This document shows, piece after piece, positions 26,234-38,021 of a stretch of 64,000 nt of DNA; within the stretch, counting starts at the first letter, position 1; the number at the start of each line of letters is the position of its first letter. The notes beneath the pieces are model-generated. The model made no database searches and was not told where the DNA came from. It saw only the letters and a program-made list of their open reading frames with translations. This DNA comes from Salinivirga cyanobacteriivorans. Its GTDB lineage: Bacteria > Bacteroidota > Bacteroidia > Bacteroidales > Salinivirgaceae. The stretch lies in NCBI RefSeq assembly GCF_001443605.1, contig NZ_CP013118.1, forward strand, positions 1,271,075 through 1,335,074, read 5' to 3'. Made by a program: the position numbers and the translations under genes.

Positions 26234-27451
26234 ATGAAAAACATAGGTAAAGCAGAAATCATATTTCTTATTTTGACCCTTGGGGCGGTCATTCTATTTA
26301 TCAGCCTTGAAAAACGGCATTTTACCAATATTCAGCCGCCAAAAATGCCAAAAGTAACGCCTGATACCATTTGGCACCAGCACCTTAGGAGCGACCTTGA
26401 CCGTGTGCTCATCAAGAAAAATAAATTCGGGTTTAACGGTGCGCTAATGGTAGGCTGGGATAATGAAATAATTTATGAAGGATATGTAGGTTACGAAGAC
26501 TATGCCAACCACGATAGCATCACGGCTGCAACAAGATTTCAAATAGGTTCGGTTAGCAAACAATTTACGGCAGTAGCTATTTTGCAACTCTATGCAAATG
26601 GCCAATTACACCTCGATGATTCCATTGGAAAATATTTCCCGGACCTACCCTACCAGGGTTTTACCATACACCATTTACTGGTACACCGGAGCGGCTTATC
26701 AAATTACATCTATTTCATTGATAAAATTGTAGAAGATAAAGGCAAAACCTACACCAACGAGGATATTATCAGGCTTTGGAAAGAACATGAACCCCTGCCC
26801 TACTACCCTCCTAACAGACGGTTCGATTACAGTAATTCGGGATATATGCTTCTGGCATCTATTATTGAAAAAGTCAGTGGCATGTCATACCCCGAGTATA
26901 TGCATAAGAATATTTTCGAACCCCTTGGAATGGACGATACCTTCGTTTACATAGCCGGGCAAAACGATACGCTACCCCATTTGGCCGAAGGCTACAAATA
27001 CCACTGGAAAGTGGTTACTGAGGCATACCTGAATGGCACCTATGGCGATAAAGGCATTTATGCCACTGCAAGAGATCTTTTTAAGTGGGACCAGGGCCTT
27101 TACAGCAAGACTATTTTACCTACTGATACCCTTCAAAAGGCATTTAAGCCAATGGGTAAGCCCAAACACTTTAAACACAACTACGGGTATGGATGGCGTA
27201 TATTTGAACATAAAGGCAAAAAAATATACTACCACGCAGGCTGGTGGCAGGGATTTAAAACTCTGCTCATCAGGGTGCCGGAATACAAGCTAACAATCAT
27301 TGTGATGAAAAATATTAAAACCGGTGCGATGTTCAGTCGCCACGAACTATTGCGCATTATCATTGATCGGTATCTGGCAGCGCCACTCGAAGCATTAATA
27401 CCTGATCTACCTCAATTTCAGCAATGCTACATACCGATTGAACTTAGTTAA
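26234..27451 (+). CDS. Serine hydrolase, class C beta-lactamase/penicillin-binding fold
   Basis: A 405-residue protein with one N-terminal hydrophobic segment (about residues 8-24), which is a signal anchor or uncleaved signal. The catalytic domain has the SxxK motif SVSK (Ser106, Lys109), YSN (199-201) and, near the C-terminus, HAGW in place of KTG. This set is typical of esterase/D-aminopeptidase-like members rather than true beta-lactamases. It probably acts in the periplasm on peptides, esters or cell-wall fragments. It ends immediately against the convergent tautomerase gene, with no spacer between the stop codons. Confidence 0.87.
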   Translation: MKNIGKAEIIFLILTLGAVILFISLEKRHFTNIQPPKMPKVTPDTIWHQHLRSDLDRVLIKKNKFGFNGALMVGWDNEIIYEGYVGYEDYANHDSITAATRFQIGSVSKQFTAVAILQLYANGQLHLDDSIGKYFPDLPYQGFTIHHLLVHRSGLSNYIYFIDKIVEDKGKTYTNEDIIRLWKEHEPLPYYPPNRRFDYSNSGYMLLASIIEKVSGMSYPEYMHKNIFEPLGMDDTFVYIAGQNDTLPHLAEGYKYHWKVVTEAYLNGTYGDKGIYATARDLFKWDQGLYSKTILPTDTLQKAFKPMGKPKHFKHNYGYGWRIFEHKGKKIYYHAGWWQGFKTLLIRVPEYKLTIIVMKNIKTGAMFSRHELLRIIIDRYLAAPLEALIPDLPQFQQCYIPIELS

Positions 27452-29316: not shown

Positions 29317-29333
29317 CCTGATAATTTACACAT

Positions 29334-30176
29334 TCAGTTATCACCGTCCAAATCAACATATTGACCAGCTACCCACCCTTCTATTTCTGCTTTAACACGA
29401 TACCAACCATCATGTTCTTCAAAAATAGTTAAACCGGTTCCTTGTGGCAAAGGCTCTGCCACCCGCGCTGCTTCAATATCGGGTAACTTCCTTATGTTTA
29501 AAAAGGGCACATTTACTACACCGAGAGGTTTGTTAAGCGGAGCGCCCTCTTCATCACGATCGTTTATTATGCGTTGGCGCAGTTTATCCAAAGGAAATGC
29601 CGGACCAGGATCTTGCTTGCGTCCCGGAGATATTTCTTCATGGCCCAATATTTCTTTAATGGCCGGATAGCGATCAATGAGCAGATCACATAACGTTTCA
29701 ACTGCTTCAATTTGCTTTTCAGTATACAAATGCCAATAACGTGCTTTCGACTCGTTTCGATGCACAGCCTCCATCACTTCATCAGCAGCAAATTTTTTAC
29801 CGAACCAGGAGGTATATGCAGTACCAGATTTAGTCAGTACACCGGCATTATCGATCTCTATTCCTATAGAATATTTATTTAGCCCTGTTCGCATCTTCCA
29901 ACTGCTTTTTCCTGCATGCCAGGCAACAGTATCAAAAGGAACCAGCTGAAACACTTTTCCATCGCGATCAACGACAAGGTGGGCAGAGGCTTTTACATTA
30001 TCTTTACAAAGATATTCGGCCGAAGACCTCCCATTCCGGCCAGCCGTATAATGCAACACAATGGTATCAGGCATACCTGCACTAAAATGAACCGTATTCT
30101 TCGGACAGTTCATTTGCTCCACATCGTCACCTTCTAAAAGATGCTTTTCATTGATACTGAAATTAAATTTATCCAT
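29334..30176 (-). CDS. N-acetylmuramoyl-L-alanine amidase with SH3 domain (endolysin-like)
   Basis: A 280-residue protein without a signal peptide. The Amidase_2 (AmpD/T7 lysozyme) domain covers about 25-200: TIVLHYTAG gives zinc ligand His42, and GHEEISPGRKQDPGPAF gives His179 and Asp189, the 10-residue spacing seen in AmpD. A bacterial SH3-like domain covers 215-278 (VPFLNIRKLPD, GWYRVKAEIEGWVAGQYVDL) and should bind cell wall. It would cleave the amide between MurNAc and L-alanine. Lack of a signal, plus the holin-like gene immediately upstream and overlapping by 8 bases, argues for a phage-type endolysin rather than a housekeeping amidase. Confidence 0.88.
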   Translation of the reverse strand: MDKFNFSINEKHLLEGDDVEQMNCPKNTVHFSAGMPDTIVLHYTAGRNGRSSAEYLCKDNVKASAHLVVDRDGKVFQLVPFDTVAWHAGKSSWKMRTGLNKYSIGIEIDNAGVLTKSGTAYTSWFGKKFAADEVMEAVHRNESKARYWHLYTEKQIEAVETLCDLLIDRYPAIKEILGHEEISPGRKQDPGPAFPLDKLRQRIINDRDEEGAPLNKPLGVVNVPFLNIRKLPDIEAARVAEPLPQGTGLTIFEEHDGWYRVKAEIEGWVAGQYVDLDGDN

Positions 30177-30633
30177 AATACTTGTTCCGGTCTTCTTTAC
30201 GAAGGAAAGGCATATCTACCCGGCTGGTCACTGTGCTGGCCACTTTTTCAGTAGAACGGCCAATAATATAACCACCTACACCCAACTTGAGTAAACCCCA
30301 GAAATTTGGATTCAAAGTATTAGCTATGCCCTGCTCCCCCTCATTTAAAAGGAAAGCGGGTTCAAAGAAATAAGCATATACCACAATAAAACCAAAAGCC
30401 AACATTAAAATTGGCCGCCAGCTACGCTGCAACCAGTTGCCACGGGCTTCTGTTATTAAAACCTCTCGTTGGGCTTCCTGCAGGTTGCCCATAGCATCAA
30501 AAACCAATTCAGAAAGCTGATTTTTGGCTTGCATTTTTTCCTCATCGGAAGTAGCAATCTTATCGATTACCTGGCCACCATTTTTGATCAGATCATTGGC
30601 GCCTTTGCTGAATAGTTTAGATAAAAATGGCAT
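30169..30633 (-). CDS. Holin-like protein (3TM holin family)
   Basis: A 154-residue protein. An amphipathic N-terminal part (1-65; DEEKMQAKNQLSELV) is followed by WLQRSWRPILMLAFGFIVVY (about 66-90) and NPNFWGLLKLGVGGYIIGRS (about 107-128), two clear hydrophobic segments, then a charged tail. The WLQRSWRP motif before the first helix is what I recall from phage and gene-transfer-agent holins of the 3TM type. Holins open the inner membrane so that endolysin can reach the wall. It overlaps the amidase gene by 8 bases, forming a lysis pair. No other phage gene is present nearby. Confidence 0.8.
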   Translation of the reverse strand: MPFLSKLFSKGANDLIKNGGQVIDKIATSDEEKMQAKNQLSELVFDAMGNLQEAQREVLITEARGNWLQRSWRPILMLAFGFIVVYAYFFEPAFLLNEGEQGIANTLNPNFWGLLKLGVGGYIIGRSTEKVASTVTSRVDMPFLRKEDRNKYYG

Positions 30634-30848
30634 AAAACACTGTTTTTATGGTTTTGCTTGAATAAGCAAATTACGAAAAAATGTTTTACTCTACCTGGTT
30701 TAAACGCTATATGCTGCTCATTACTGAGAATAAACTTACGTTAAAATATTGTTATTCTAATGATTATACCACACACTCTACTATAAATTGATGTAATTTT
30801 ATTCTTGAAAATTCAAAATCAATTCTAATTAATCACAAATTCACAGTT

Positions 30849-34384: not shown

Positions 34385-34531
34385 GGAGTTGCTTATTATC
34401 AATAAAGAAAAAAAATCACTCCTGCATGTTAGTGAGAAAATGGTTCCATGTTCAGCAATAGGGTGTTTGATATTTCTGTTTGCGTACAAAAACAAATAAA
34501 TCCGATAAAACTGCATCAAATCGGCTTTAAA

Positions 34532-35014
34532 TTACTCAAGAAAATCATCTGGATCGAAGGGTATATCATCGTCTGGGTCTTGATCGTGCGGGCCTACGCC
34601 CGGTGGATTGAACAATCCCCAGCGATCAATTATATAGTTCCATTTATCGAAACCAGCTACCCAATCGATGAACAATAACCGGTATTCTTCTATCAATTTG
34701 CGCACAATATCAAAATATTCAACATACTCAAACCCAAAATCTTCCAGTGAATGGTTTTGTATCATTAAATCCATTGCAGCCTTACGGATTAAAGCTGCAT
34801 TTTGCATTCTGATATCCTATAAATCGCCTCCTTCAGCACCTGCAACCTTAACCGTAAGCATAGCTGCATCTGATAACATTTGCATTTTTATATCCTGCAA
34901 AATCTCGTTATCTTCCGGTATTAAAGCGATAATCTCTTTTACCGTATCATAAATCTTACGTCCTTTTTTATAAATCGGGAGGTTTTCAGGTTTGATTTCT
35001 TCAAATTCATCCAT
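34532..35014 (-). pseudogene. Small helical protein gene interrupted by one in-frame TAG
   Basis: Two minus-strand open frames are in the same phase and separated only by TAG plus three codons: ...AGAEGGDL-stop-DIRMQNAALIRK... The upstream part (start at the ATG at 35014, or 35041 or 35065) ends at the TAG at 34817-34819. The downstream part, through 34532, ends in an acidic tail (PHDQDPDDDIPFDPDDFLE). Read through, they make one protein of about 160 residues, helical and similar in layout to small four-helix-bundle proteins of Bacteroidota, as I remember them (ELPIYKKG start, WNYIIDRWGLFNPPGVGP end). A single nonsense change best explains the break. The downstream piece could in principle start at its own ATG (34807). 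Confidence 0.7.
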
Positions 35015-35325
35015 ATTGTTAGCTGTTATGAACTCAATCATATTACCCGCTCCCAAAAACAGCAAAGCTCATTCAAAATAATCAGTAAGCACCGGCATTT
35101 CTTATAGTTCAAGGGCACTACCTATTCGTGAACCAAATAATAGCTAGAATAAGGTTCAGTTTAGGTAATTTTCTATAAAACCTCCTAAATTTGGATTTTA
35201 AACCATGGCTTAAGTCAAATCCTTTTCCATTTAATATAAAATTTATTTTTTTATATTTAATTATCTTATATTCAATATTCAAGCATATTAATAACTATTG
35301 GAGTTTAACTGAAAAATTATCTGTC

Positions 35326-36165
35326 ATGAACAAAGAAAAAAACAAGGACTTGAATCAGAAAATTGATAATGAACTTAAGAAAAAAGAATTGCAAAAGAAG
35401 TATGGAGCAGACTTTAGGGGTGAAGGCAACATTTCGCCAGAATTGGAAAATCAATGGTTAAATTATATTGATGAGTTCGAAAAGCAATTCAACAGCACTA
35501 CAGAACAAATAAGCGTTTGGGAGTACATTGGCCAACCTGCCTATCAAAAAATAAACGAGTTAAGTCCTAACGAAATTTCTAAAGAACTTGAACGAGTACT
35601 CGCTGTAATGCGCGAAAATAATATTTACCTGGACACTTTTTGTGAGGTGGATGATAATGAGCTCTATCGTTTTATAACCGAAGAGCTTTTTGTTTACGAA
35701 ATTGATAATATGAATATCCCAGGCATGTCAACTAATTTCATATACGAAGAATTCCATCCAAATGCTAAATTTGATATTGAAATGGCCTTCGACAACTTTT
35801 TCACGTCTACTATGCAAAAACATACAAGTATTGATGGTAAGGGGTATGACTTGACATATGTTGACACAAAAAACCACAAAAATGCGATAAATGAGCCAGT
35901 CGATAAAAAAACTGTGATCGAAAAAATCAATAACTTTCTAAATACCTTCGATTACTTCGAAATCATCTCCAATGAAATATTAGAAATCACTATTAATCAG
36001 GATAAAACAGATGCACAAATTGATTTTCGCATACATATTAATGGCCGATTTCATAAAAGCAAAGAGACAATTACTTATAAAGGAAATGGTTTTTTCAAGC
36101 TAAAGCCAAGCGAATATGGAGGTTGGGATATTTACCACATCAATATGCCGGGATTAAAATTCTGA
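35326..36165 (+). CDS. Unrecognised cytoplasmic protein
   Basis: The product is 279 residues from the ATG at 35326; the longer frame from 35191 adds a hydrophobic stretch coded in AT-rich leader DNA and is less likely. The N-terminus is Lys/Glu/Asn-rich and helical (MNKEKNKDLNQKIDNELKKK). The middle has NELYRFITEELFVYEIDNMN and FIYEEFHPNAKFDIEMAFDN. The C-terminal 80 residues alternate beta-strand and loop (AQIDFRIHINGRFHKS). I do not recognise the family. Base composition is more AT-rich than in the flanking housekeeping genes, and it lies between a broken gene and a toxin-antitoxin pair, so it is probably accessory. Confidence 0.65.
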   Translation: MNKEKNKDLNQKIDNELKKKELQKKYGADFRGEGNISPELENQWLNYIDEFEKQFNSTTEQISVWEYIGQPAYQKINELSPNEISKELERVLAVMRENNIYLDTFCEVDDNELYRFITEELFVYEIDNMNIPGMSTNFIYEEFHPNAKFDIEMAFDNFFTSTMQKHTSIDGKGYDLTYVDTKNHKNAINEPVDKKTVIEKINNFLNTFDYFEIISNEILEITINQDKTDAQIDFRIHINGRFHKSKETITYKGNGFFKLKPSEYGGWDIYHINMPGLKF

Positions 36166-36281
36166 AAATCAATTACTGCACAATACAGAATGTGTATAGG
36201 CGAGTGTTAATTGCTATTTATCAGATAATTAGATATATGTCGAATTATATAAAATTGTAAAATAGTTGTAAAAGATGTGTT

Positions 36282-37235
36282 TTAATAATTTCCTTTCAGT
36301 TGAGAAATCAATCTAAGAAAAGATTCAGCAATGAGTTTCTCATCAGGTATTTCAGCATACGCATAGATGGATAACTCCTTAATATATGCTTCCTTCAGCT
36401 TTTCCCAAACACGCTCAAAGTCAGATACCAATATTGACTCATTTAGCTTATACTGCCCCCAACCTTTGGGCTCATCAAATGATTGTTGATCGTGTAATAG
36501 AAGGTTATTGAAACGTTCTCTAAAATTCGCACTAGTAATAAACTCTTTACCCTCCTTTGTTTCCAATAAATAATACAGATCATAAAAGTGCCTTATCTTT
36601 GATCTAACACCTTCCAAAGAATCTTCTTGAAAAGAAAAACGAATCAGCGAAACGAGTTTCTCAATTAAAGTTTGAAAGCGATCCAAAACATTTATTCTAA
36701 AAGGCTGCAAATTAAAATCATTGATTGCTTTTTCATTACCAGTCTCTCTTAAAAATGTAGCTATAAAGCTTTCAATTTCTCTTTCCTCATAAGGATAAGG
36801 ATTGGCGAAATAATTGGTTTCAACAATTACGAAATTTTCATCTTTAAGCTTATCATCAACAGGATAGACATAGGCACTCTTGCGAAAACGTGAACCTTTA
36901 CTAGTAAGCCTTGCTATTTCTAATTCTTTCAAACCACCAGCAACAGTCTTTTCAATTTTGCGTATTTCACTCTTAATTCTATTACCGGAAAATTCAGGAT
37001 TCTGTATCACAGCCAAATCAACATCTGTAGAAAAACGATTGATCAATTTATAAGCTTTTGAAAGTGATGTTCCCCCTTTAAACACAACTTGATCTCGATT
37101 CGGATAATTTGATAAGTTCCAAAGCATATAGGTTATCCAATAATCCTTCACGATAAAATCCGGCTTGATTTCCAGATGAATTGAAGCCATTTGAATTGCA
37201 TCATTAAATAACTTTGTTTGATTATGTAGATTCAT
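36282..37235 (-). CDS. AbiEii-type nucleotidyltransferase toxin
   Basis: A 317-residue nucleotidyltransferase of the AbiEii/AbiGii family. The active-site pattern KGGTSLSKAY (about residues 54-63) followed by RFSTDVDLAV (70-79) has the GS and DxD metal-binding residues. In type IV toxin-antitoxin systems this enzyme arrests growth, and it can abort phage infection. The start chosen (ATG at 37235) overlaps the antitoxin stop as ATGA, and four extra upstream codons are possible. It lies downstream of and coupled to the AbiEi-like antitoxin. Expected in the cytoplasm. Confidence 0.88.
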   Translation of the reverse strand: MNLHNQTKLFNDAIQMASIHLEIKPDFIVKDYWITYMLWNLSNYPNRDQVVFKGGTSLSKAYKLINRFSTDVDLAVIQNPEFSGNRIKSEIRKIEKTVAGGLKELEIARLTSKGSRFRKSAYVYPVDDKLKDENFVIVETNYFANPYPYEEREIESFIATFLRETGNEKAINDFNLQPFRINVLDRFQTLIEKLVSLIRFSFQEDSLEGVRSKIRHFYDLYYLLETKEGKEFITSANFRERFNNLLLHDQQSFDEPKGWGQYKLNESILVSDFERVWEKLKEAYIKELSIYAYAEIPDEKLIAESFLRLISQLKGNY

Positions 37236-37957
37236 AGTATATTCCATTTAGTTGCATTCGGCAAACAGGTGCTCGATACTCCGATTTTATATTTCGTGAT
37301 TGGATTGAGTGATTTTGAGAGAGGTTCAACAGCCCTGTTACCTAACACCCGTTCAAGCATTGCTCCCAAAAAAGCCCGTGTTGCAGGCGGATATTTTTTC
37401 GCCAAACGAATCATTTGAATTTGATCACTTTCATTTGAATTTTTCACAATTTCAAATAGTCTTTTACACGCATCATCAATGGTGGTATCGGGAATTTTTT
37501 TGATAAAACGAATAGCATCCAAAATCTGTAAAAACGGAATATTCTTTTCTGTAATGGTATTCTTCTGTTTGACAAAACTAATTTTGTATAATCCACGCTG
37601 CAAGGTCGGTCGCGTTTCATTCCGCCCAATTTGTATAGTATTACTGACCTGAGTTGTTAAGCCCAGCTTTGTGTAAATCGAATAACCAGTGAGGTATCCG
37701 GTAAGATTATCTCCTTTACCTAATAAGTCTTTTACTACCTGGTACTGATCAGGCGGAACCAAACCAAAACTGGTTTCTTTAGGTTTATAATATTTACCTT
37801 TTGAAAGTTTTGCAATCTCCCCTTTAGCTACCATTCTGTTCAGTGCCTTGATGATTGCTTCCCGATCATTCACATCAGGGTTAAAGTCCCTATAGGTGAA
37901 TACATAACTAATAGGAAGCCTACTAATTGTATTTCTTATATAATCAGATACTTGCAT
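37232..37957 (-). CDS. AbiEi-like antitoxin/transcription regulator (DUF6088 type)
   Basis: A 241-residue protein. The N-terminal part (about 10-60) is a winged helix (FTYRDFNPDVNDREAIIKAL, MVAKGEIAKLSKGKYYKP), the usual DNA-binding module of AbiEi. The rest (about 70-241) includes LTGYSIYTKLGLTTQV and resembles the AbiEi C-terminal domain that neutralises the toxin. Antitoxins of this type repress their own operon by binding inverted repeats, and a perfect 15-bp inverted repeat lies just upstream (37986-38021). The stop codon overlaps the toxin start (ATGA). Confidence 0.85.
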   Translation of the reverse strand: MQVSDYIRNTISRLPISYVFTYRDFNPDVNDREAIIKALNRMVAKGEIAKLSKGKYYKPKETSFGLVPPDQYQVVKDLLGKGDNLTGYLTGYSIYTKLGLTTQVSNTIQIGRNETRPTLQRGLYKISFVKQKNTITEKNIPFLQILDAIRFIKKIPDTTIDDACKRLFEIVKNSNESDQIQMIRLAKKYPPATRAFLGAMLERVLGNRAVEPLSKSLNPITKYKIGVSSTCLPNATKWNIL

Positions 37958-37973
37958 CTACTTATAGTTTCTG

Positions 37974-37981
37974 CAAATATA
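37974..37981 (-). promoter_or_regulatory. -7 promoter box of the AbiE operon
   Basis: The minus-strand sequence TATATTTG matches TAnnTTTG and lies 17 bases upstream of the antitoxin start at 37957. The inverted repeat begins 5 bases further upstream, over the expected -33 region. Confidence 0.65.
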
Positions 37982-37985
37982 CGAT

Positions 37986-38021
37986 AAATGTCCAGTTTTT
38001 AAATAAAAAAACTGGACATTT
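37986..38021. promoter_or_regulatory. Perfect 15-bp inverted repeat, probable AbiEi operator
   Basis: AAATGTCCAGTTTTT (37986-38000) and AAAAACTGGACATTT (38007-38021) are exact reverse complements separated by 6 bases. The site overlaps the promoter region of the AbiE operon, in the position of the repeats bound by characterised AbiEi proteins. Binding by this antitoxin is inference. It could also form a hairpin, but it has no T-run on the operon strand that would suit a terminator. Confidence 0.8.

What the first reader, a model, noticed from the sequence alone, without database searches (positions are those of the whole stretch)
29334..30633. Solitary holin-endolysin pair without a phage
The sequence shows an AmpD-type amidase with a cell-wall SH3 domain but no signal peptide, overlapping by 8 bases a protein with a WLQRSWRP motif and two hydrophobic helices typical of 3TM holins. 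No capsid, tail, integrase or regulatory phage gene is nearby; the neighbours are a radical SAM enzyme and a surface lipoprotein. In gene transfer agents and contractile-injection systems, lysis genes can be located away from the particle genes. A host-controlled lysis module that releases particles or surface material is a possible reading. Conserved holin and complete zinc ligands suggest selection.
Basis: partly seen in the sequence, partly recalled or inferred. Interest (0 to 1): 0.75.

Follow-up and report, generated by a model that had tools for sequence, protein, structure and literature searches.

The report
Phage-free holin and endolysin pair
A Bacteroidota bacterium carries a lone two-gene cell-bursting unit of viral origin, apparently inserted between two ordinary genes without any virus; a near relative of its pore gene sits directly behind giant Tc-type toxin genes, so the unit probably lets cells release their contents in a controlled way, but its cargo here is unknown.

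Summary
Window 30169-30633(-) encodes a PF11351 holin; 29334-30176(-), overlapping it by 8 bases, an Amidase_2-SH3 endolysin. It is the only PF11351 gene in the 4.81-Mb genome. No structural phage gene was found nearby, nor sheath, portal, terminase or capsid genes genome-wide (partly insensitive). In a congener the flanking genes are neighbours without the pair, so it probably arrived as a bare insert of about 1.4 kb. Four other Bacteroidota carry the same pair, intact, 52-72% identical, at other sites. The gene-transfer/injection-particle reading finds no support: 0 of 13 holin genomes have a sheath gene. Best clue to function: in one Bacteroidales MAG the holin closest to this clade lies 56 and 82 bp behind two TcA-type toxin genes, the layout of Tc-linked type 10 secretion systems. 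No TcA-type gene lies within 100 kb of the window; the rest of this genome was not searched for Tc. Verdict: a domesticated, horizontally moving, T10SS-like pair; function unproven. Related holin cassettes often sit beside DUF6266.

The parts
30169..30633 (-). holin gene, 154 aa, PF11351 (GTA_holin_3TM); first gene of the pair
   Evidence: five rows aligned
29334..30176 (-). endolysin gene, 280 aa, Amidase_2 plus SH3_3, no hydrophobic N-terminus; second gene of the pair
30169..30176 (-). 8-base overlap of holin end and endolysin start
   Evidence: spacing in close relatives 3, 3, 3 and 18 bases, in two distant ones overlaps of 4 and 1
29601..30071 (-). Amidase_2 domain (residues 36-192) with candidate zinc ligands H42, H179, D189
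   Evidence: ligand role recalled
29352..29501 (-). SH3_3 domain (residues 226-275)
30340..30423 (-). main hydrophobic stretch of the holin (residues 71-98)
29317..30739 (.). stretch that stands where congener G004 has about 178 bp of spacer: the inferred insert
   Evidence: homology of the remaining spacer is weak, 62%; no convincing target duplication or end repeats
30631..30670 (-). two small inverted repeats just upstream of, and over, the holin start codon; possible control site, not shown
   Evidence: 15 of 200 shuffles fold at least as well; not at the same place in 4 relatives

Best explanation
A phage lysis pair captured by bacteria and used as a host-controlled release device of type 10 secretion (T10SS) type. 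Proposed working: an unknown signal turns on the two-gene unit; the holin collects in the inner membrane and opens it; the signal-less amidase passes through, binds peptidoglycan by its SH3 domain and cuts it; the cell, probably one of a small subpopulation, releases its cytoplasmic content. Shown: the two genes and their domains, their pairing, the missing phage, probable insertion at the site, intactness in relatives, and a close relative of the holin directly behind TcA-type toxin genes in another Bacteroidales genome. Inferred: activity, regulation, lytic rather than non-lytic release, and that a cargo exists in this organism.
For: Families. The same pair in window, L026, L039, L040, L041: holins 57-72%, amidases 52-64% identical, all open frames, no phage context. 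Probable insertions at two sites: between radical SAM and lipoprotein genes (adjacent in congener G004), and next to an SppA-like gene in G136 (no holin or amidase hit in the stretch fetched around that gene in 19 of 19 other genomes of the family, 18 of which keep both genes on its other side). Holin behind two TcA genes: L047 and L048, 2879 and 2759 aa, TcA_TcB_BD 3.3e-102 and 9.6e-104, holin 56 and 82 bp downstream on the same strand; that 84-aa fragment scores higher with all five of this clade (57-69% identity) than with any of the phage holins in the set (up to 57%). PMC13284979 (passages): the T10SS core is a holin plus a peptidoglycan hydrolase, spanins optional. PMC10847048 (passages): T10SSs lie within Tc toxin operons and release by lysis. 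Family activity: the PF11351 holin TeaA of phage ICP1 collapses the proton motive force when expressed without phage (PMC7182436, passages).
Against: No cargo, regulator or spanin recognised beside the pair; no TcA-type ORF in 264 kb around it nor on the 163-kb contig of G136, and the rest of the genome was not searched for Tc genes. The contigs of L047 and L048 end inside the holin, so an amidase there was not seen, and both come from one MAG. Patchy: 1 of 6 genomes of the family, 1 close orthologue in 20 of G136's family. The five holins form one side of a branch with support of only 79/20, among phage holins. No expression or lysis data; T10SSs differ in whether they lyse the cell.
Confidence: 0.5

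Rival explanations
1. Stranded phage lysis genes: a fragment of phage DNA recombined into the chromosome and persists without benefit.
For: The holin is a common phage type (473 relatives in IMG/VR) and phage holins surround the five in the tree; presence is patchy; no regulator or cargo recognised nearby.
Against: Both genes are intact in 5 of 5 carriers at about 52-72% identity, always with the same partner, whereas none of 80 viral holin loci and none of 80 viral amidase loci examined holds the partner in the stretch fetched. Independent chance capture of exactly these two genes at different sites is unlikely.
Confidence: 0.2
2. Anti-phage or altruistic-death device: the pair bursts the cell early during infection or stress, in the way that satellite or host factors disturb lysis timing.
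For: Solitary, mobile and patchy like defence genes; an AbiE-type pair lies about 6 kb away; a phage satellite protein is known to upset the lysis timing of a phage with a PF11351 holin (PMC7182436, passages).
Against: No PADLOC model matches either gene; no recognised defence genes beside the nearest orthologues (by eye only).
Confidence: 0.12
3. Cargo of an undescribed small mobile element that moves holin-endolysin pairs.
For: Different sites in every carrier; related holin cassettes are multi-copy in Butyricimonas and some lie near genes that look like recombinases (by eye).
Against: No convincing target duplication or end repeats at the window insert and no recombinase among its scanned neighbours.
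Confidence: 0.12
4. Remote lysis genes of a gene transfer agent or contractile injection system.
For: PF11351 carries the gene-transfer name; putative lysis genes outside the particle cluster are reported in Rhodobacter (PMC3423380, passages).
Against: No sheath, portal, terminase or capsid match in the genome; 0 of 13 holin genomes have a sheath gene. Caveat: G102, whose holin lies among genes that look phage-like by eye, was also negative with the portal, terminase and capsid models.
Confidence: 0.04

Closest known systems
Type 10 secretion systems (ChiWXYZ of Serratia, ChiH/ChiP of Salmonella, YenLC of Yersinia entomophaga)
   Same: phage-derived holin plus peptidoglycan hydrolase outside a phage; spanins can be absent; a relative of this holin stands behind TcA genes, as T10SSs lie in Tc operons
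   Different: Bacteroidota; PF11351 holin and an Amidase_2-SH3 enzyme; no cargo or regulator recognised next to the window pair
Bcn5-type bacteriocin loci of clostridia (PMC9527704, passages)
   Same: holin and N-acetylmuramoyl-L-alanine amidase outside a phage, SH3b domains in the setting
   Different: there a bacteriocin and a sigma factor accompany the pair, and the holin is of the BhlA family
RcGTA lysis genes rcc00555/rcc00556 of Rhodobacter capsulatus
   Same: holin plus endolysin away from particle genes
   Different: no GTA genes found in this genome with the models used; rcc00555 is described as a putative lysozyme
Phage lysis modules with PF11351-type holins (for example L095, L096; TeaA of ICP1)
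   Same: holin up to 53% identical in viral contigs
   Different: surrounded by phage genes where viewed, and without this amidase in 80 of 80 viral loci examined
DUF6266-holin-endolysin cassettes of Butyricimonas/Odoribacter and of family f135
   Same: PF11351-type holin beside an amidase or M15 peptidase, no phage structural genes noticed by eye in those viewed
   Different: amidase shorter, without room for SH3; one or two DUF6266 genes beside it; several copies per genome; no DUF6266 in this genome

Membership tests
PF11351 GTA_holin_3TM | score above the curated cut-off | tested here: met
   52.4 bits against 24.8
PF11351 GTA_holin_3TM | three transmembrane helices | tested here: inconclusive
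   one strong hydrophobic stretch, a second below threshold; three long helices in the model
Type 10 secretion system | holin and peptidoglycan hydrolase encoded together outside a phage | tested here: met
Type 10 secretion system | hydrolase without its own export signal | tested here: met
   no hydrophobic N-terminus, read by eye from the sequence; no signal-peptide program was run
Type 10 secretion system | linked or co-regulated cargo | tested here: inconclusive
   no TcA-type ORF within about 100 kb of the window; TcA beside a relative's holin; rest of the own genome not searched for Tc
Type 10 secretion system | holin-dependent protein release | not testable with these tools
   needs experiment
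Gene transfer agent lysis module | GTA structural cluster in the same genome | tested here: inconclusive
   no portal, Terminase_6N or HK97 capsid match, though these models ring in Caulobacter; but they are silent too in G102, whose holin neighbourhood looks phage-like
Contractile injection system release | sheath gene in the same genome | tested here: not met
   no PF04984 match in the own genome, 0 of 13 holin genomes; the model rings in 30 of 393 of the order
AmpD equivalog | NCBIfam cut-off of 143 bits | tested here: not met
   108.4 bits, plus an added SH3 domain
Prophage remnant | other phage genes in the flanks | tested here: not met
   9 window neighbours: structural labels only on one protein that looks like a serine beta-lactamase by eye

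The most novel reading that the evidence does not exclude
Bacteroidota use a family of mobile, phage-free holin-endolysin units as T10SS-like release systems: one branch, to which the window pair belongs, serves Tc toxins in at least one species, and a second, repeatedly multiplied branch releases DUF6266 proteins, which would thereby get a first function.
Probability: 0.3. Interest if true: 0.78.

Novelty: new variant of a known kind. Interest (0 to 1): 0.55.

Why it matters
Release by T10SS is described, in the passages read here, for Yersinia, Serratia, Salmonella and clostridia. A bare, mobile holin-endolysin unit in Bacteroidota, with a relative placed behind Tc toxin genes, would extend it to a phylum for which I saw no such report in the listings of ten searches of the held open-access papers (subscription journals and preprints are not covered). 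It would also give a testable function to DUF6266, for which that library holds no paper.

Tried and rejected
Contractile or GTA particles elsewhere in the genome: no match. Weak point: G102, whose holin lies among genes that look phage-like by eye, was also negative with portal, terminase and capsid models, so those three negatives are not decisive.

AmpD recycling enzyme: rejected. Defence system: no PADLOC match to the pair. Transposition signature: no convincing target duplication or end repeats; one 9-base direct repeat (29211 and 30719) roughly brackets the insert, but its left copy lies inside the radical SAM gene and such repeats are common by chance. Base composition of the insert is not deviant. 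Conserved control site upstream: hairpins in the window only, and 15 of 200 shuffles fold as well. Sigma-70-like sites are not above chance (3 against 4.8 expected); terminator-like sites were 3 against 1.1 expected, two of them the same place inside the holin gene.

A viral source carrying the same pair: not found. 80 of 473 holin relatives were kept, 0 with the amidase (77 of the 80 holins were recovered as ORFs); 80 of 93 amidase relatives were kept, 0 with this holin. The single-protein amidase scan found none. L215 (57%, without SH3) and L216 (46%, with SH3 region, beside another possible holin) show the amidase type in viral contigs. 71 phage and 260 plasmid records hold amidase matches, all under 60% identity; 9 phage records hold holin matches, all under 60%.

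Fold comparison of the holin gave nothing significant (none at E<=0.001; sequence search, best E 0.085). The DUF6266 model matched fibronectin-type-III-like sandwiches over residues 107-207 (Z up to 8.7; none at E<=0.001 by Foldseek in PDB), a common fold that shows no function; one viral match at 9.5e-6.

Tree: 54 of 57 chosen loci gave a holin; L102, L060 and L070 were left out because no holin ORF was found; the label 'phage' on several rows is by eye. For the neighbour scan 55 of 66 listed proteins were used (the 10 pair genes and one overlapping ORF dropped; ORFs under 120 or over 900 aa, or cut by the end of a locus, were never listed); for the control 47 of 55. Of 39 families in the neighbour scan only 25 were shown. 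The holin model used 25 and the DUF6266 model 50 sequences.

Full report
WHAT IS THERE. Window 30169-30633(-) encodes a 154-aa protein of PF11351 (GTA_holin_3TM; 9.8e-14; phrog_3427 holin 2e-31). Overlapping its end by 8 bases, 29334-30176(-) encodes a 280-aa Amidase_2-SH3_3 protein whose best PHROG matches are amidases and endolysins. Its first residues hold no hydrophobic stretch. H42, H179 and D189 (the AmpD-type zinc ligands, as recalled) are invariant in 7 of 7 aligned rows. It is the only PF11351 gene of a 4.81-Mb single-contig genome.

NO PHAGE AROUND IT. 55 neighbour proteins of the window pair and its four close relatives gave 39 PHROG families. None of the 25 shown is a terminase, portal, capsid or sheath. 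The three structural labels shown were traced to two proteins: window 26234-27451 (phrog_382 and phrog_22561; a serine beta-lactamase-like protein by eye) and L026:10995-12764 (phrog_53; an SppA-like peptidase by eye). The same scan of 47 proteins around four phage-type holins gave 112 families, with terminase, sheath, baseplate hub and primase among those shown. In the whole genome, sheath, portal, Terminase_6N and HK97 capsid models found nothing. Portal, terminase and capsid models were also silent in G102, whose holin neighbourhood looks phage-like, so they are weak tests. Across 393 genomes of the order, 13 hold PF11351 and 30 a sheath gene, with no genome in both lists; about one is expected by chance.

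IT PROBABLY ARRIVED ALONE. In congener G004 the radical SAM gene and the beta-helix lipoprotein gene that flank the pair are neighbours, 281 bp apart, without it. Weak homology (62%) with the window spacer resumes near 30740, so about 1.42 kb stands where the congener has about 178 bp. There is no convincing target duplication and no deviant composition, and no recombinase among the scanned neighbours. Loss in the congener is not excluded, but 1 of 6 family genomes carries the pair (one of the other five is only 85% complete). A second case: G136 carries the pair next to its SppA-like gene. All 20 genomes of that family have this gene; in the stretches fetched around it, only G136 shows a holin or amidase, while 18 of the 19 others keep both genes that stand on the other side in G136 (the nineteenth lies at a contig end). 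Only 1 of those 20 genomes has a close orthologue of the holin (a second has a distant match of 31.9 bits).

THE PAIR IS KEPT TOGETHER. One scan of 84,980 species genomes gave 56 relatives. Three of these (Reichenbachiella versicolor, a Prolixibacteraceae MAG, a Flavobacteriales MAG), together with G136 from the order search, have the same holin followed by the same amidase-SH3 gene; the gap is 3 bases in three of them and 18 in the Flavobacteriales MAG. Holins are 57-72% and amidases 52-64% identical, all frames open, neighbours different in each and without phage genes by eye. A sample of 395 genomes of the phylum gave matches in 16, none but the own genome with a score of this grade (276 against 89.8 bits). 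In a tree of 54 holins these five are one side of a branch with weak support (79/20) and lie among phage holins. The origin is therefore most likely phage, the present state cellular.

THE BEST CLUE TO FUNCTION. Two contigs of one Bacteroidales MAG (L047, L048) end inside a holin whose 84 visible residues score higher with all five of this clade (57-69% identity) than with any of the other holins in the tree set (best phage identity 57%). Directly upstream on the same strand, 56 and 82 bp away, stands in each a complete ORF of 2879 or 2759 aa with TcA_TcB_BD (3.3e-102, 9.6e-104), ABC_toxin_N and Neuraminidase-like domains; the second was also compared with solved structures and is related to TcA subunits. 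The two ORFs differ (about 66-78% DNA identity over the aligned pieces), while the holin ends are 99.6% identical over 257 bases, so the same cassette seems to stand behind both. In Yersinia entomophaga a T10SS releases the Tc toxin by lysis of a subpopulation, and T10SSs are embedded in Tc operons of other species (PMC10847048, passages). The core of T10SS is stated to be a holin and a peptidoglycan hydrolase, with spanins dispensable, and whether release is lytic differs between reports (PMC13284979, passages). A PF11351 holin, TeaA of ICP1, collapses the proton motive force when expressed without phage (PMC7182436, passages). I therefore read the window pair as a T10SS-like release unit.

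LIMITS. No TcA-type ORF lies in the 264 kb around the pair or on the 163-kb contig of G136. Whatever follows the L047/L048 holins lies beyond the contig ends. Nothing is known of expression, regulation or outer-membrane passage. Hence 'works like a T10SS' is about an even bet, and 'is a T10SS' is open.

A WIDER PATTERN. Related holins recur in Bacteroidota outside evident phages (by eye): with an M15 peptidase (L052, L053), with a short amidase-like gene (L024), with a distant holin and the SH3 amidase (L022, L023), and in cassettes with DUF6266 (PF19781). Of 67 holin places tested, 32 have DUF6266 within 3 kb: 19 together with an amidase, 6 with an M15 peptidase, 7 with neither found by the profiles used; 22 have none of the three (a few places were fetched twice). 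By the record titles, four Butyricimonas genomes have 8, 7, 5 and 4 such holin loci. DUF6266 has no PHROG match in five members tested, is present in 58 of 393 order genomes, in 3 of the 13 with PF11351 (G121, G293, G355), though not in this one, and is in no paper of the library. Its model (mean pLDDT 90.8) ends in a fibronectin-III-like sandwich. It is a candidate cargo of those cassettes; that is inference.

Noticed in passing
L047:1305-10252, L048:1639-10252: Two TcA-type toxin genes in one Bacteroidales MAG, each followed at 56 and 82 bp by a nearly identical holin of the window's type; the contigs end inside the holin.
   Followed up: partly
L050, L054, L057, L063, L082, L083, L091 and others; L202-L206, L212: Multi-copy cassettes of PF11351-type holin, amidase or M15 peptidase, and DUF6266 in Butyricimonas/Odoribacter and in family f135; candidate phage-free release systems with DUF6266 as cargo.
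   Followed up: partly
window 36282-37957 (-): AbiEi/AbiEii-type toxin-antitoxin pair in a GC-poor stretch (about 34450-38000), probably a separate acquired island.
   Followed up: partly
L198, L199: In G442 two loci hold a PF11351-type holin between a gene that looks like a recombinase and two large genes (535-547 aa, one tested with an ATPase-like PHROG match, and over 1540 aa) of unknown function.
   Followed up: partly
L039:6052-9552 (-): 1166-aa protein without any Pfam match directly beside the holin pair in Reichenbachiella, divergent.
   Followed up: partly
L216:5321-6744 (+): A viral contig pairs an amidase-SH3 46% identical to the window's with a different small upstream protein that may be a holin, beside genes that look like tail genes.
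   Followed up: no
L317:1188-5513 (-): A 1441-aa protein that looks like Cas9 by its first residues (recalled), about 84 kb left of the pair in the same genome.
   Followed up: no
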